From positions 1 through 5,035 of the forward strand of contig CALFEN010000258.1 in assembly GCA_937950065.1 (NCBI GenBank): a DNA stretch of 5,035 bases, read 5' to 3'. The notes under the pieces were generated by a model, which was not told the DNA's origin, did not search any database, and saw nothing but the letters and a program-made list of their open reading frames with translations. Positions 1 through 5,034 of the stretch are shown piece after piece. The stretch is from an uncultured bacterium (lineage in GTDB: Bacteria; Patescibacteria; JAEDAM01; Absconditabacterales; Absconditicoccaceae). The position numbers and the translations under genes are program-made. The first letter of the stretch is position 1; every line of letters begins with the position of its first letter.

Positions 1-46
1 CGAGATAAGCTAGTGACTGGAGTTCAGACGTGTGCTCTTCCGATCT
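1..46 (+). other. Illumina TruSeq adapter and index (library contamination)
   Basis: Bases 13-46 match the standard Illumina multiplexing read-2 adapter, beginning GTGACTGGAGTTC and ending CTCTTCCGATCT. Bases 1-6 (CGAGAT) are the end of the P7 flow-cell sequence, and bases 7-12 (AAGCTA) sit exactly where the 6-nt index lies. From memory this is the reverse complement of TruSeq index 10. None of it is genomic. Biological sequence starts at about base 47, and the open frame on the minus strand is cut there. The adapter at the very first base indicates untrimmed reads at a contig end. Confidence 0.97.
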
Positions 47-210
47 TTTTTAAATTCAGGGAAAAAATGCATAAAGCTTTGTCCCTGATTTCTCAAAACA
101 CTTTCTATATTTACTGCAATATCCGCCAAAATAACTTCTAATCTTTCTATCTCTAGCTTAACTTCGCCAAAATCTATCTCTCATAGTAAAGTAGAAGGGT
201 TTTGTTGCAT
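47..210 (-). CDS. Hypothetical protein, N-terminal fragment cut by contig end
   Basis: The frame reads about 54 codons from an ATG at 210-208 with no TAA or TAG until it runs into the adapter at base 46, so the C-terminus is missing. Residue 10 is a TGA-encoded glycine. Residues about 15-45 are rich in Leu, Ile, Val and Glu with a helical, coiled-coil-like spacing (EVKLEIERLEVIL), followed by a more polar stretch with Phe-Phe-Pro near the cut. I recognise no family. A well-formed promoter lies 49 nt upstream on the same strand, which supports this being a real gene with its own transcription start. There is no clear Shine-Dalgarno before the ATG, and an in-frame TTG lies two codons upstream, so the exact start is open. 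Confidence 0.55.
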
Positions 211-258
211 GTACAAAATTCTTATTTTATAAATTTTTCTATTATCAAAGACTGCGTT

Positions 259-288
259 ATTATATATAGATTTACAATACAAAGTCAA
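259..288 (-). promoter_or_regulatory. Sigma70-type promoter for the 47-210 gene
   Basis: Read on the minus strand, a TTGACT -35 box (288-283) is followed by an 18-nt spacer and a perfect TATAAT -10 box (264-259). The expected start is near 252, giving a leader of about 40 nt before the ATG at 210. It lies in the 103-nt gap after the methyltransferase stop, so the truncated gene need not depend on read-through. In DNA this AT-rich TATAAT alone would mean little; the paired -35 box at proper spacing is the support. Confidence 0.55.
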
Positions 289-313
289 TATAATTTTAAA
301 TACATTTTTAAGA

Positions 314-984
314 TTATATTTTTTTGCATAGTATATTTGTATAGTATATGGCTATCCTGTCTTGAGTCTTGTAATATCATATAAATTTTTCCTGATCTAT
401 CACCTCAAATTTATCTTTCAAGACATCTTTGATTTCATCGACCGTATATCTAAAATTATCAAAATCGGTCAATGGATGAATCGGTGCGTTTCATACCTTA
501 CCCATAGGAGAATGCTTATCTCTTTGTATACTATGTCAGTCCACAAACTCTTCAAAACTAAACAAAAATATCATCATTTTTTGAGCTTATCACAAATATG
601 ATTTAATACATAATCTTTTTTTGTTAGAAATTCAAATAGTCAAATCATAATTATTGTATCAAATTTTCATTTTACTGTGTCAAATTTTTCTTCTATATCA
701 ATTTTTGATGTTTTTATATCAGGATATTTAGTTTTTATTATCTCTATCATCTTTGAAGAAATATCTATTCATACATAACCATCATTTGATATATTAGCAG
801 TAATCAGTTCATCGAGAACTTGTCCTGTGCCGCATCACAAATCCAGAAGTTTGCCCACATTTGTGATTTCATTCCTTTGAATGATCTCTACTGCTTTTTT
901 ACAAGGCAGCCGTGCAAATTCAGGCGTCTTTTGATCATACACACTAGAAAGGAAATCATAATATTGTTCTATTGTTTTTGGCAT
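314..984 (-). CDS. Class I SAM-dependent methyltransferase, one-base frameshift
   Basis: Predicted to transfer a methyl group from S-adenosylmethionine; the substrate cannot be read from the sequence. ATG at 984-982 is preceded directly by an in-frame TAA and by AGGA at 7 nt. Numbering assumes the frame is repaired (223 aa). Motif I LLDLGCGTGQVLDEL lies at 46-60, with Gly50 encoded by TGA at 837-835. The acidic post-motif GYVGIDIS is at 69-76, FDTIIMIGLFEFL at 108-120, and a Lys-Lys-Gly-Gly turn at 135-138. After the Gly-Gly the frame must shift by -1 in a T run (564-568 on the plus strand). The continuation (SFEEFVDGHS, then NAPIHPLTDFDNF) is open to TAA at 316-314. Without the shift the reading ends at a TAG at 399-397 with an implausible tail. 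The methyltransferase fold is secure; whether the gene is intact is not. Confidence 0.85.
564..568 (-). other. Frameshift site in the methyltransferase (T5 run)
   Basis: On the coding strand the text reads TGATGATATTTTTGTTTAG. Frame 0 gives Gly-Gly-Tyr-Phe-Cys-Leu-Val and then poor protein. One extra T (T6), or a -1 slip, gives Gly-Gly-Tyr-Phe-Leu-Phe-Ser-Phe-Glu-Glu-Phe, in keeping with the Rossmann strand expected after the Gly-Gly turn. A missing base in a homopolymer (assembly or real mutation) is the simplest explanation. A UUU codon in a U5 run would also permit a P-site -1 slip, but no classic X-XXY-YYZ heptamer is present. Confidence 0.8.
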
Positions 985-991
985 TTATTTA

Positions 992-995
992 TCCT
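992..995 (-). promoter_or_regulatory. Ribosome binding site of the methyltransferase
   Basis: AGGA on the minus strand, 7 nt before the ATG at 984. It is the only recognisable Shine-Dalgarno element among the starts in this window whose upstream sequence is visible, and it supports that start. Confidence 0.5.
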
Positions 996-1018
996 GAAAA
1001 AAATAAAAACTATATCAA

Positions 1019-1046
1019 ATTTTAAATCTTTTTATAGGAAAATCAA
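1019..1046 (-). promoter_or_regulatory. Possible leftward promoter for the methyltransferase
   Basis: On the minus strand TTGATT (1046-1041) and TAAAAT (1024-1019) are separated by 16 nt, upstream of the methyltransferase start. Both boxes deviate from consensus and the region is so AT-rich that chance matches are expected, so this is tentative. Confidence 0.28.
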
Positions 1047-1139
1047 TAAAATATTGCTCAATTTTTAAAAAATTATAATATCCTTTTATTTAATACATAA
1101 AATTTTTTAAAAATATTTATAAAAAATAAATATAAAAAT

Positions 1140-1167
1140 TTGACAAATAAAAAAAATATAATATAAT
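1140..1167 (+). promoter_or_regulatory. Sigma70-type promoter for the pilT gene set
   Basis: Perfect TTGACA (1140-1145), a 16-nt spacer made almost only of A and T, and a perfect TATAAT (1162-1167). The start point would be near 1174, leaving a leader of about 30 nt before ATG 1204. It probably drives pilT and the two closely spaced genes behind it. Confidence 0.6.
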
Positions 1168-1203
1168 TTAATAAAAGATATTTTTATATAAAATATTAAT
1201 TCA

Positions 1204-2331
1204 ATGGTAGAAGAAAAATGAAAGTCCAATCCCATCTTCAAAATATTTGATAAATTTGTGGATACAACTTATTGTGATTTACACGTATGAGTAAAATACA
1301 ATTATGTCAGGGAAAGAGTTTGAAATATCAAAAATCTTTGATTTGGTCTCACAAACGATATTATAGAAGCTTTTGCAAAACAAATATTAACCAAAGATAA
1401 ATTTTCTTTATTGCTTTCATGAGAAGAGGTTGATTACTGATTTACTTACAAAGATGCAAGATTTCGTTTAAATTTTTATTATGATAACGAATGATTGAAT
1501 ATAGCAGCCAGAAGGATAGAATCAAACTATCCAGATCTCGGAGCTCTATGACTTACCGATATTCTACAAAAAAATTTCTTAAAACAAAAAGGACTTATAC
1601 TCATTACATGACCTACAGGTACATGAAAATCCACAACTATGGCATGAATTCTCAAGTTTATAGCAGATAACAGGAAATGCCATATTTTAACATTGGAAGA
1701 CCCTATAGAATATATTATAAGCTCCAGCAATTCGCTTATCCATCAGAGAGAAGTGGGAAGAAACACAAAATCATGGTTAAACTGAATAAAATATGCACTC
1801 AGGCAGGATCCAGATGTAGTAGTGGTATGAGAAATGAGAGATCTGCCAACTATAGAATGAGTATTGACCCTAGTAGAAACATGACACCTTGTAATCTCTA
1901 CGCTTCATACTATAGATGCTGTACAGACTATTACTAGGATAATAAACTCTTTCCCTCCAAACCAACAAAATAGAATCGCACTACAACTCAGTATGGTTTT
2001 GGAAATGGTAATATCACAGAGACTTATACCTCGTAAAGATTGATTTGAAAGATATTGTGTCAGAGAAGTATTGATAAACAATACGGCTATCGCAAACCTT
2101 ATCAGGACTTGAAGAATCCCATGAATATATGGAGTACTTGAAACTCAAAGAAAAATATGAATGACTACGATGGACAATGATATGGCACTAGCCGTAGTAA
2201 ACGATATGGTGGATATCAAAGATGTATTACCGCTTGTCAAAGATATGGCTAGCTTCAAACAGATGGTCCTTTATTATCAGGAAGAAAAAGATAGAAGAGA
2301 ACTTTATAAACCAAAAAACAAAGATGAGTAA
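1204..2331 (+). CDS. pilT: PilT-type type IV pilus retraction ATPase
   Basis: A cytoplasmic hexameric ATPase that powers depolymerisation (retraction) of type IV pili, giving twitching or gliding and surface attachment. The 375-aa length is close to the usual PilT. The N-terminal domain spans about 1-110. Then come Walker A GPTGTGKS (136-143), the Asp box LTLEDPIEY (162-170), Walker B DPDVVVVGEMRD (202-213) and the His box STLHTIDAVQTITRI (232-246). The PilT signature AIANLIRTGRIPG (295-307) follows; PilT usually has AIRNLIRE. Lack of a tetracysteine zinc site and of a long N-terminal domain argues against PilB. Nineteen of 25 glycines are TGA, including Gly136 (1609-1611) and Gly141 (1624-1626) of Walker A. 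An in-frame TAA 15 nt upstream makes ATG 1204 the first possible start; no Shine-Dalgarno is visible. The stop overlaps the next gene by 8 nt. PilU is a less likely alternative. Confidence 0.93.
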
Positions 2332-2860
2332 AAAGAAAGATGTAAATATAGACGAAGCTCTACAAGAACTAGATGCCGTAGACGATAGCCCAAAAGAAAA
2401 AGCCTTGAGAAAGAAAGTTGAAAGACTTGAGACTTCTAACCAGACTTTAACTCTTGCTCTCAAAATAGCAAATGTAATGAATAGTATAGAATCTTGAAAT
2501 TTTTGAGATCTTGAAAAAGCTCTAAAAACCCTTTTTGCAGTATGAGAAATTACTGTTCTAAAAAGCTACGATTGAGTACTATCCAAATATTGACCATGAT
2601 TTATCAAACCTGCAATACTGGAACGAATAGAGCAATCTATACAAAATAAAAAAAGTTGAGATGTTATAGTCTGCAAATGAGATGATAACCTTATATTTTT
2701 ACCAGATGGAGTAATATATCTGACATGAGTAAAAAAACTACCTCAAGATCAGATAAATCAAATATTAACCCTTGGTCTAGGAAATATCAGATATGTAGCT
2801 GATAATATAGAAAGAGATGCTAATTTTGATGAAGCAACATGACTCAGTTTAGATTCTTAA
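2324..2860 (+). CDS. Coiled-coil protein coupled to PilT, possible GAF-like C-terminal domain
   Basis: A 178-aa soluble protein with no signal or membrane segment. Residues 1-25 are charged and probably disordered. Residues about 23-50 (KEKALRKKVERLETSNQTL) form a likely coiled coil. From about 60 to 165 there is a compact alpha/beta pattern with strands at 113-117 (DVIVC), 122-126 (NLIFL) and 129-134 (GVIYLT) and a final amphipathic helix (140-163). This order resembles a small sensor fold such as GAF, but I see no ligand-binding motif, so that is inference. The start ATG lies inside the pilT stop region (8-nt overlap), implying translational coupling and balanced production with PilT. An upstream in-frame ATG at 2222 lies deep inside pilT and is rejected. 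Ten of 13 glycines are TGA. The context suggests an accessory or regulator of the retraction motor, unproven. Confidence 0.82.
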
Positions 2861-2870
2861 AAAAAACAAA

Positions 2871-3434
2871 ATGAATTTCCAACCAAAAACTCCAACTTTA
2901 GAATCTTTACATATAGGTTGAAAAAAAAGTGTTTTAAATACCAATTTTGAATTACTTCAATTACTAGACGAAAATTGAGATGAATTTGAAATAGAAGAAG
3001 AACCTTGAGATGATGAAAACAGTTTTATAAAAAGATATTATTTCCATTGACAGCAAATTTGATTTGCTGAAATTTCAATTATAGGAAACAGACTATTGTT
3101 ATCAAGACTCGGTAGTATCAACTGATACAGGAATAATTGGCAAAACATTGAATACGATGAACAAGAAATATTTGAAGAATCAATAGAGAACCTGTGCGAA
3201 GAATTTAATCTCTCTTCAAATTTCGACAAAAATATGTCTTTTTTAAACTGAATCTGAAAGTTTATCATGTATAATGTAATAGAATTCGCGAAAGAAAAAG
3301 GTGCCGATAGTATAGAACTAGAAAAAGATGTTACAAATGATGAGTTTTATGAAAAAATTTTAAACAGCTTCAAAGCAGATGGCACAATCAGCGATTTTGA
3401 AGAAATGTGAAAACTTATAGATATATCTTTATAA
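2871..3434 (+). CDS. Small acidic protein with GNAT-acetyltransferase-like region
   Basis: 187 aa, soluble, starting 10 nt after the previous stop, so probably the third gene of the pilT set. The N-terminus is variable and carries a very acidic run (34-50, ENGDEFEIEEEPGDDEN). Residues 59-85 look like beta strands (QQIGFAEISII, RLLLSRLGSI). Then LNGIGKFIMYNVIEFAKEKG (125-144) and DSIELEKDVTNDEFYEKI (146-163) resemble GNAT motif A: a Gly-x-Gly-Lys loop, a helix, Ala-Lys-x-x-Gly, a strand, and an Asn followed by a Tyr. If correct, it would bind acetyl-CoA and acetylate an amine. However, the central Tyr-Arg-Gly/Gln stretch usual before Gly-x-Gly is weak and the family assignment is by eye only. 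Nine of 14 glycines are TGA, two of them the putative loop glycines 127 and 129. No Shine-Dalgarno; the leader is A-rich. Confidence 0.8.
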
Positions 3435-3476
3435 TATAATCTTCGAATTTCCGCTTCAACTTTAAACAAAAAAGTA

Positions 3477-3506
3477 TTGACAAAGTAACCTATATAACTA
3501 TATATT
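3477..3506 (+). promoter_or_regulatory. Sigma70-type promoter for the exported Cys-rich protein
   Basis: Perfect TTGACA (3477-3482), an 18-nt spacer and TATATT (3501-3506). Transcription would start near 3513, about 27 nt before ATG 3540. A perfect TATAAT at 3507-3512 also exists but is 24 nt from the -35 box. The promoter sits in a 105-nt gap after the GNAT-like gene, suggesting the next gene is a separate unit although it is on the same strand. No GC-rich terminator hairpin is visible in the gap. Confidence 0.55.
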
Positions 3507-3539
3507 TATAATTTATAATTAAAATAAATATACAAAAAT

Positions 3540-4532
3540 ATGGAATCTTTACAATTTTCTTTAAATCCTAAAATTTCTTGAAAAACTTGAAAAGTTTTGC
3601 AAATTTTGAGTTTAGCGATTCTTATATGTTTGGGAGCGGATAAAGCAGACGCGACAAAATGTTGATGTAATCCTCTGGACAAAGATAATCTATATTGTAC
3701 CATGTTTCAATCATATCCATTTCTATTTGAGTCTTTCCAAAAATTTTTTTCTGCATCATACAAACTTCCTACAGATACATTTACTTTGAACTGTAGCAAT
3801 CTAGGTCAGATAGATTCTCCCAAAGTTACAAAATCATATAATGAATATATTTCTAGTATTTGTGGTTGTTCAGAGAAAAAATGATTTATCTTTTTTATAG
3901 AAGACTGGCAAAATATTTGAAGGCAATTAGGGTTAACCAATGAACAAATGTTAGATGTTTTTGAACAATATCTACAAAACAATTATATTCCACTTCAAAA
4001 CATACTATTTTTGGAGGATCTCAAAAATTTTTATGGAAGCAAGTTTGATAAAAAAATATCTGAATTTATGATGATGCTAGACAAAAATCCAAATGTAAAT
4101 TCAAACCATCTTCAACTTTTATTTTGAGATTTTATAGAAAATTATCGCAATTCACAATGAGCATTACAAAACAAAATAACTATATATTCTTTTAGTATAG
4201 CAATATTCCTATGCATTGTCCTTTTCTTGAAGAGCAATAAAGAATTCAGAAGAATGAATGCAGAGCTTAACAGATACGCCCATAATAATTTGTCCGTAAA
4301 AAAACCTTGAGATACAGTAGAATGAAATAATTTCTGAAAAACTTTGGAATGACAGAGTGATTATATAGTATCAGTTGATCATACTACAGATTGAACCAAT
4401 GATTCTTGAGGTAAAAAATGAAAAGTAACGCCATTAGTTCATCCTCAAGCAAAATGAAAAACAATTCCTCCTCTAGAAGAAGTGATAGAAGAATTAACAG
4501 TTGAATTTAAAGAATGAGAGTGAGGCCGTTAG
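3540..4532 (+). CDS. Predicted exported, Cys-rich single-anchor membrane protein
   Basis: 330 aa, no recognised family. The N-terminus looks like a Sec signal: basic residues (K11, K15, K18), a hydrophobic core about 19-32 (VLQILSLAILICLG) and a possible signal peptidase site after Ala-Asp-Ala (36-38). The predicted outside part (about 39-212) holds six cysteines: C41 and C43 as Cys-Gly-Cys, C53, C85, then C108 and C110 as a second Cys-Gly-Cys. This suggests disulphides or metal binding. A second hydrophobic segment at about 213-230 is followed by basic residues (KSNKEFRRMNAELNR), so the last 100 residues should be cytoplasmic. They are Gly-rich, polar and probably disordered. Seventeen of 24 glycines are TGA, ten in that tail. 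An in-frame TAA 15 nt before the ATG fixes the start; no Shine-Dalgarno is seen. It may be a surface or pilus-associated factor, but this rests only on location. Confidence 0.83.
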
Positions 4533-4539
4533 AGCGATA

Positions 4540-4556
4540 AAATTATAATATAATTT
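4540..4556. terminator. Weak A/T palindrome at the convergent gene ends
   Basis: AAATTAT-AAT-ATAATTT forms a 7-bp stem with a 3-nt loop at the meeting point of the two convergent genes, overlapping the last codons of the phosphoesterase. The stem has no G or C and no clear T tail, so it would be a poor intrinsic terminator. Only its position makes it worth listing. Confidence 0.2.
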
Positions 4557-5034
4557 CTAGAAATTCAGTCCTTATCATAGTACCAGGGTTTACTACGTAA
4601 GTACATTTTTCATCGTCCAGTTTGATTTCATTGACCGGTAAAAAAATTCAATCTTTATACTTATATATTTCTTGTCTATGTGTATGTCAGCAAAATAGTA
4701 TCTTTGCATCATTTTCCAAAGCTATATTAACCAATCATTCCCTATTTCATCTTGGGTTTGACACCTGATGTCAATGAGCTATCATCATTTTATATTTATC
4801 TATTTCCCAAAATTTCATTTCAGGCAAAGTATTTTTTAGTTCATATTCATCACTATTACCATGTACGCAATAAAGTCTATTTCAAGCAATTTTTTTTATT
4901 GTCTCATAAGTAGCTGTGGTATCAAAATCACCACAATGTATTAGTAAATCATAATCTTTATTTTCTAAAAAATCCGATATATCAAAATGATTTCTAGAAG
5001 GAATATGATTATCTGATATTACAAGTAATTTCAT
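4543..5034 (-). CDS. Metallophosphoesterase, YfcE/MJ0936 type
   Basis: A 163-aa calcineurin-like phosphoesterase, the usual length of the small YfcE/MJ0936 phosphodiesterases, which use two divalent metals to hydrolyse phosphodiesters. All metal-site motifs are present in order: Asp8 and His10 (ISDNH), Asp36 (CGDFD), Asn60 (HGNSDE), His87 and His89 (AHGH), and His117 and His119 (GHTH). The family's late Asn-Pro-Gly (149-151) is also kept. TGA encodes the invariant Gly88 (4773-4771) and Gly116 (4689-4687); six of nine glycines are TGA. The ATG is one base from the window end, so its promoter and leader are out of view. It runs towards the Cys-rich protein gene, leaving only 10 nt between their stops. 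The physiological substrate cannot be told from the sequence. Confidence 0.92.

What the first reader, a model, noticed from the sequence alone, without database searches (positions are those of the whole stretch)
47..5034. UGA is read as glycine throughout (code 25), used as the main Gly codon
Seen: all six long genes need TGA read through and end at TAA or TAG. About 71 of 102 Gly codons are TGA by hand count. The choice of Gly over Trp (code 4) is decided by motifs: Walker A would otherwise be Trp-Pro-Thr-Gly-Thr-Trp-Lys, and the phosphoesterase motif would be Trp-His-Thr-His. Known: this reassignment defines Absconditabacteria and Gracilibacteria. Anyone annotating with code 11 will report only fragments and antisense frames.
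Basis: partly seen in the sequence, partly recalled or inferred. Interest (0 to 1): 0.75.

Follow-up and report, generated by a model that had tools for sequence, protein, structure and literature searches.

The report
Bacterial DNA reading UGA as glycine
This piece of DNA, probably from an uncultured Absconditabacteria-like bacterium, uses the usual stop signal UGA to mean the amino acid glycine, a known quirk of this group that many nearby public protein entries seem to get wrong by writing tryptophan instead.

Summary
In 92 PilT homologues without in-frame stops, the 19 UGA columns hold Gly in 701 of 1407 cells and Trp in 9; log-odds are +26.6 bits for Gly, -62.2 for Trp. Gly is the commonest residue in 10 of the 18 columns with cover. 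Code 25 is right, code 4 wrong; this is known biology. A PilT tree puts the window in a clade with a named Absconditabacteria protein. Corrections: (1) the methyltransferase ORF 397-984 is frameshifted near 565; the true end is 314. (3) The name Gracilibacteria is not enough: one MAG so named has prfB and a PilT without in-frame stops. prfB loss and tRNA-Gly(UCA) could not be tested: no genome is held.

The parts
1..46 (+). Illumina library adapter, not genomic; 13-46 is the exact 34-base TruSeq sequence; 1-12 looks like the end of P7 plus a 6-base index (recalled)
   Evidence: exact match at 13-46, none expected by chance; the same 34-mer and the word TruSeq occur together in 108 papers (listing only)
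47..210 (-). partial gene, 54 codons, cut by the adapter; 1 TGA and 2 GGN
   Evidence: frame and codons
314..984 (-). class I SAM-dependent methyltransferase gene with a frameshift near 565: in-frame pieces about 565-984 and 314-565; 9 TGA codons, among them Gly50 (835-837) of DLGCGTG (SAM motif, recalled); stop TAA at 314-316
   Evidence: Pfam Methyltransf_12/31/25 over cut-off, scanned on the 195-aa ORF 397-984; 223-aa homologue P0123 follows the window's first frame to GGYF and then its second frame
1204..2331 (+). PilT/PilU family type IV pilus ATPase, 375 aa, 19 TGA and 6 GGN codons, stop TAA
   Evidence: TIGR01420 337 bits, cut-off 319; PDB 2ewv PilT E=6.7e-65 with TGA masked as X; codons
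1609..1626 (+). Walker A core: TGA-coded Gly136 and Gly141 (GPTGTG)
   Evidence: Gly in 92 of 92 homologues at both columns
2324..2860 (+). gene of unknown function, 178 aa, overlaps the end of pilT; 10 TGA codons, stop TAA
   Evidence: three database proteins found: the window's own P0126 and homologues P0127, P0128; no Pfam family over cut-off
2871..3434 (+). GNAT-like acetyltransferase, 187 aa, 9 TGA codons, stop TAA
   Evidence: PF00583 22.1 bits, cut-off 20.7; no NCBIfam match
3540..4532 (+). unknown gene, 330 aa, 17 TGA codons, stop TAG; looks like an exported membrane protein by eye
   Evidence: no Pfam or NCBIfam match; no homologue search was made
4543..5034 (-). YfcE-family phosphodiesterase, 163 aa, 6 TGA codons, including Gly116 of GHTH (4687-4689), stop TAA
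   Evidence: TIGR00040 85.6 bits, cut-off 56.25; PDB relatives 2kkn and VPS29 with TGA masked

Best explanation
The window is a short contig, most likely chromosomal, of an Absconditabacteria-like member of the recoded CPR bacteria that use translation table 25. UGA is a sense codon for glycine and its commonest glycine codon here (about 71 percent). Shown: the genes, the UGA-to-Gly reading by homology in PilT, and gene ends at UAA or UAG only. Inferred from the literature on this group: a glycine tRNA with anticodon UCA reads UGA, release factor 2 (prfB) has been lost, and release factor 1 ends translation at UAA and UAG.
For: With TGA masked as X, PilT still finds PilT structures. In 92 homologues without in-frame stops the 19 TGA columns hold Gly in 701 of 1407 cells (49.8 percent) and Trp in 9, against 266 of 473 Gly at the 6 GGN columns and 6.2 percent Gly overall. 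Log-odds for TGA over 18 columns: Gly +26.6, next best Ala -17.1, Trp -62.2 bits; as a control, 23 of 25 codons with 5 or more columns recover their standard meaning, the exceptions being TGA and TTT. The conserved glycines at 136 (92 of 92), 141 (92 of 92), 209 (90 of 91) and 227 (91 of 91) are TGA here. In 53 database entries that print W at conserved glycine columns, the TGA columns hold W 442 and G 120 of 1007 cells, while the true TGG column (191) holds W 51, R 1, F 1 and never G. In the phosphodiesterase the masked TGAs in GHQ and GHTH align with Gly of VPS29. PilT groups with an NCBI Absconditabacteria protein, P0007, support 0.98. UGA-to-Gly is supported by proteomics in BD1-5 (PMC4032931, passages).
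Against: No genome is held, so prfB and tRNA are untested for this organism. In 8 of the 18 TGA columns with cover Gly is not the commonest residue in these distant homologues (29, 46, 73, 79, 148, 194, 219, 307; Ala, Trp, Arg, Ala, Ala, Ala, Leu and Gln lead), and at column 46 Trp has 9 of 37 against 3 for Gly. In the PDB entry 2kkn the masked TGA of GHQ aligns with Cys, not Gly. The statistical test rests on one gene family, and the homologues are not independent.
Confidence: 0.97

Rival explanations
1. UGA is read as tryptophan (table 4), as in Mycoplasma and as the public entries matching this window are written.
For: P0002 and P0122, and in all 53 of the 120 listed PilT entries, print W at conserved glycine columns or TGA sites; at column 46 Trp (9 of 37) exceeds Gly (3) in homologues.
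Against: All 19 (P0002) and all 9 (P0122) differences from a table-25 reading are at TGA, so there the W is a choice of table, not an observation. Homologues without in-frame stops have Gly in 92 of 92 at the two Walker A columns and Trp in 9 of 1407 cells overall. Log-odds for Trp lie 89 bits below Gly. PilT would be 5.3 percent tryptophan (P0002).
Confidence: 0.01
2. UGA is still a stop and the region is decayed, or held together by frame errors.
For: One frameshift is present, in the methyltransferase, and table 11 lists only short ORFs.
Against: Open runs without TAA and TAG are far longer than simulated ones, UGA falls on glycine positions, and relatives at 83-85 percent identity have full-length PilT entries.
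Confidence: 0.005
3. The contig is a code-25 phage or plasmid rather than a chromosome.
For: Phages of these hosts can also use code 25 (PMC10746230 and PMC13059738, passages); two genes have no family.
Against: No match in 50,697 phage or 72,556 plasmid records at megablast sensitivity; no PilT relative confirmed in viral contigs, though that scan reads table 11 and is weak for recoded DNA. PilT, YfcE and a methyltransferase are ordinary cellular genes, and no phage gene is among the Pfam and NCBIfam matches; PHROGs was not searched.
Confidence: 0.03
4. UGA is mostly Gly but read ambiguously, with some Trp from near-cognate tRNA-Trp(CCA).
For: A few non-Gly UGA peptides were reported in BD1-5 (PMC4032931); four of 53 recoded genomes carry an unusual tRNA-Trp(CCA) (PMC13092985, passage).
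Against: Nothing in the window bears on it directly; the Walker A glycines use UGA, which would make misreading costly (inference).
Confidence: 0.1

Closest known systems
Table 25 (SR1/Absconditabacteria and Gracilibacteria code, UGA = Gly)
   Same: UGA in frame at glycine positions, UAA and UAG as the only stops, low GC (28.7 percent), PilT relatives in Absconditabacteria
   Different: No difference in the UGA reading was found. prfB and tRNA were not testable. The two CGA/CGG codons here lean to Arg, whereas PMC8629427 (passages) predicts Trp for CGA and CGG in Absconditabacteria
Table 4 (Mycoplasma code, UGA = Trp)
   Same: UGA is a sense codon
   Different: Residues at UGA columns are far more often Gly than Trp
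CGA/CGG to Trp reassignment of Absconditabacteria (PMC8629427)
   Same: CGN is rare here: 6 CGN against 42 AGR codons
   Different: The one CGG (methyltransferase 25) and one CGA (178-aa gene, 101) sit where homologues from other organisms have R in 4 of 4; a relative, P0005, has R at the conserved Trp191, as that reassignment would give

Membership tests
Table 25 organisms (UGA = Gly) | in-frame UGA at positions that are Gly in standard-code homologues | tested here: met
   PilT: 701 of 1407 cells Gly, +26.6 bits; Gly commonest in 10 of 18 columns with cover; second gene only by PDB alignment
Table 25 organisms (UGA = Gly) | genes end only at UAA or UAG | tested here: met
   five TAA and one TAG for the six genes once the methyltransferase end is corrected
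Table 25 organisms (UGA = Gly) | glycine tRNA with anticodon UCA | not testable with these tools
   no tRNA in the window; no genome held for it
Table 25 organisms (UGA = Gly) | no release factor 2 (prfB) | not testable with these tools
   no genome held. 379 sampled genomes of G001's phylum gave no match to a TGA-coded Walker A pattern that does match the window, so no recoded relative was reached
Absconditabacteria | phylogenetic placement | tested here: inconclusive
   PilT tree: eight-member clade with the NCBI Absconditabacteria protein P0007, support 0.98; one gene and one named anchor
Absconditabacteria | CGA and CGG read as Trp (predicted, PMC8629427) | tested here: inconclusive
   two codons only; R in 4 of 4 homologues, whose own codons cannot be seen
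Table 4 organisms (UGA = Trp) | UGA at Trp positions | tested here: not met
   Trp in 9 of 1407 cells, -62.2 bits

The most novel reading that the evidence does not exclude
The lineage (the window with P0003 and P0004) lies inside or beside Absconditabacteria, reads UGA as Gly, but keeps CGA and CGG as Arg, so the second reassignment predicted for Absconditabacteria would not hold for the whole clade. Basis: R in 4 of 4 homologues at the only two CGR codons here, while P0005, in the same eight-member PilT clade, shows R at a conserved Trp.
Probability: 0.3. Interest if true: 0.4.

Novelty: already known. Interest (0 to 1): 0.15.

Why it matters
The reassignment itself is established. What matters in practice is that public protein collections hold proteins printed with tryptophan at conserved glycine sites: 53 of the 120 listed PilT hits, including the entry that matches this window. 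That distorts homology searches, active-site motifs and composition statistics for these bacteria, and would mislead anyone who tests the code by looking at close homologues. If the CGA/CGG observation held, it would help place a second code change inside the group.

Tried and rejected
I went through a MAG titled Candidatus Gracilibacteria (L001 = G001) to 379 genomes of its phylum. That MAG looks standard-code (PilT without in-frame stop; prfB over cut-off). For the 379: PilT in 340 at E<=1e-30; prfB over cut-off in 340, so not in 39. I took 20 of those 39 (the weakest best E-values and the three without a match, picked by eye); the other 19 were not followed. prfA was found in 17 of the 20, in no listed match with TGA inside; these 17 look like standard-code genomes with prfB missing or unassembled (inference), and the other 3 stay unexplained. 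A TGA-coded Walker A pattern matched 0 of 379; it matches the window and would fit 39 of the 53 W-printed PilT entries at the four residues checked, if their W is TGA. No recoded relative was reached, so prfB loss and tRNA-Gly(UCA) stay untested.

The phosphodiesterase against 116 of those genomes gave nothing at E<=1e-6 (the tool notes that an empty answer shows nothing), so a second column statistic could not be made; only PDB alignments cover it. Viral contigs: 13 stretches matched a pattern, none confirmed. Phages and plasmids: no match at megablast sensitivity. Promoter, Rfam, PHROGs and PADLOC searches, a homologue search for the 330-aa protein, and structure predictions were not run.

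Column counts left out 11 of 103 matched loci, 6 for an in-frame stop in the match and 5 for E above 1e-20. The 92 used are not independent; many come from Verrucomicrobia and Patescibacteria. The tree used 52 of the 53 W-printed entries (P0065 left out), P0007, the window and 8 of the 67 other entries.
Full report
What is there. Under table 25 the window holds six long ORFs: a class I methyltransferase (Pfam), a PilT-family pilus ATPase (TIGR01420 over its cut-off), a 178-aa protein of unknown function, a GNAT-like acetyltransferase (PF00583 just over its cut-off), a 330-aa protein without a family match, and a YfcE-family phosphodiesterase (TIGR00040 over its cut-off). A seventh, partial gene runs into a sequencing adapter at the left end (47-210, minus strand). 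Under table 11 only ten short ORFs appear, two of them in-frame fragments of real genes by coordinates.

Counts. With the methyltransferase read in its two proper frames there are 1456 codons: 70 TGA, 29 GGN, 4 TGG, no TAA, no TAG; the partial gene adds 1 TGA and 2 GGN. Open runs of 379 and 334 codons with TAA/TAG as stops exceed anything in 200 Markov simulations (largest 220); with all three stops the longest run is 112.

Which amino acid. I masked every TGA in PilT as X, so that the query could not favour glycine, and aligned it by tblastn to loci at hand. I take these 92 as standard-code because their matches are free of stops. At the TGA columns Gly fills 701 of 1407 cells and Trp 9; at the GGN columns Gly fills 266 of 473; the background for Gly is 6.2 percent. 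In a column-wise log-odds test in the manner of Codetta, TGA scores +26.6 bits for Gly, -17.1 for Ala (next best) and -62.2 for Trp. As a control, 23 of 25 codons with at least five columns recover their standard meaning; TGA is one exception and TTT (Tyr over Phe) the other. Against the reading: of 18 TGA columns with cover Gly is commonest in 10; in the other 8 (29, 46, 73, 79, 148, 194, 219, 307) another residue leads, and column 46 has more Trp (9 of 37) than Gly (3). For the phosphodiesterase I only have PDB alignments: the masked TGAs in GHQ and GHTH align with Gly of VPS29; in 2kkn the GHTH one does, the GHQ one meets Cys. For the methyltransferase, TGA50 falls in the SAM motif DLGCGTG (sequence; motif recalled).

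A trap in the databases. The database entries that correspond to this window (P0002 for PilT; P0122 for the methyltransferase, on a 5035-base contig) differ from the table-25 translation at 19 and 9 residues, every one a TGA printed as W. Of the 120 PilT hits listed (of 7990 passing), P0002 among them, carry W at one or more of seven conserved-glycine columns. That their W is also TGA is inferred, since their DNA was not seen. P0007, named by NCBI as Candidatus Absconditabacteria, has Gly at all seven. The same entries speak for glycine when read so: at the 19 TGA columns they hold W 442 and G 120 of 1007 cells (then S 93, A 78, D 46), at the 6 GGN columns W 110 and G 65 of 318 (then S 42, E 35), while at the one true TGG column W holds in 51 of 53, with R and F once each and G never.

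Homologue P0123 (223 aa) follows the window's methyltransferase to GGYF (residue 140, base 565) and then continues LFSFEEF, which the window has in the overlapping frame of ORF 314-577. The last 55 codons of ORF 397-984 are therefore out of frame, and the gene really ends in TAA at 314. This also removes two apparent CGA/CGG codons (168, 181). An adapter at the contig end and a break in a run of T suggest, but do not show, a sequencing or assembly error.

Which organism. PilT is 83-85 percent identical to two unnamed entries (P0003, P0004), then 54-56 percent to P0005, P0006 and P0007. A FastTree of PilT with all W and G masked puts the window, P0002-P0007 and P0011 in one eight-member clade with support 0.98 (P0002 is the window's own protein). 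This is one gene with one named anchor, so Absconditabacteria is likely, not proven. The label Gracilibacteria is not enough: the MAG behind L001 bears it, yet its PilT has no in-frame stop and it has prfB over cut-off. PMC8629427 (passages) reports two such species.

CGA and CGG. PMC8629427 predicts CGA and CGG as Trp in Absconditabacteria. Only two such codons remain here: CGG at methyltransferase residue 25 and CGA at residue 101 of the 178-aa gene. The homologues from other organisms have R at these sites in 4 of 4 (P0124, P0125; P0127, P0128). Their codons cannot be seen, so this leans to Arg without settling it. P0005, in the same clade, has R at the conserved Trp191, as a CGR-to-Trp change would give.

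Literature. [quoted passage not shown] I saw passages of these, not whole texts. The founding paper of Campbell and others (2013) is not held and is known to me through these citations and recall. I did not establish whether the W-printed database entries have been described in print; two searches were seen as listings.

Not tested. prfB loss and tRNA-Gly(UCA) in this genome. A sample of 379 genomes of the phylum of G001 held no recoded relative by the pattern used.

Verdict. The observation and the interpretation are right and the phenomenon is known; the added points are the W-printed entries, the frameshift and a weak hint about CGA/CGG.

Noticed in passing
window 1-46: Illumina adapter left at the contig end; 13-46 is the exact TruSeq 34-mer. 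Table-25 ORF 10-288(-) reads through it (KSTRLNSSH tail).
   Followed up: yes
window 314-577 and 397-984, minus strand, near 565: Frameshift in the methyltransferase; a 223-aa homologue (longest contig 8571 bases) is intact.
   Followed up: yes
P0002-P0065 (database PilT entries): 53 of 120 listed PilT entries print Trp at one or more conserved glycine columns, probably table-4 translations of code-25 genes.
   Followed up: partly
P0005, PilT column 191: Arg where 51 of 53 of those entries have Trp; may be a CGA/CGG codon read as Trp in that lineage.
   Followed up: no
window 1204-2860: pilT and the following 178-aa gene overlap and seem to stay together in relatives: P0003 and P0127 have the same longest-contig length (2436), P0004 and P0128 likewise (2366).
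   Followed up: partly
window 3540-4532: 330-aa protein without a family match, with several Cys in its N-terminal half and one likely membrane segment by eye; downstream of pilT and the two following genes.
   Followed up: no
L001 / G001: A MAG titled Candidatus Gracilibacteria has a PilT without in-frame stop and prfB over cut-off: the name alone does not imply code 25.
   Followed up: yes
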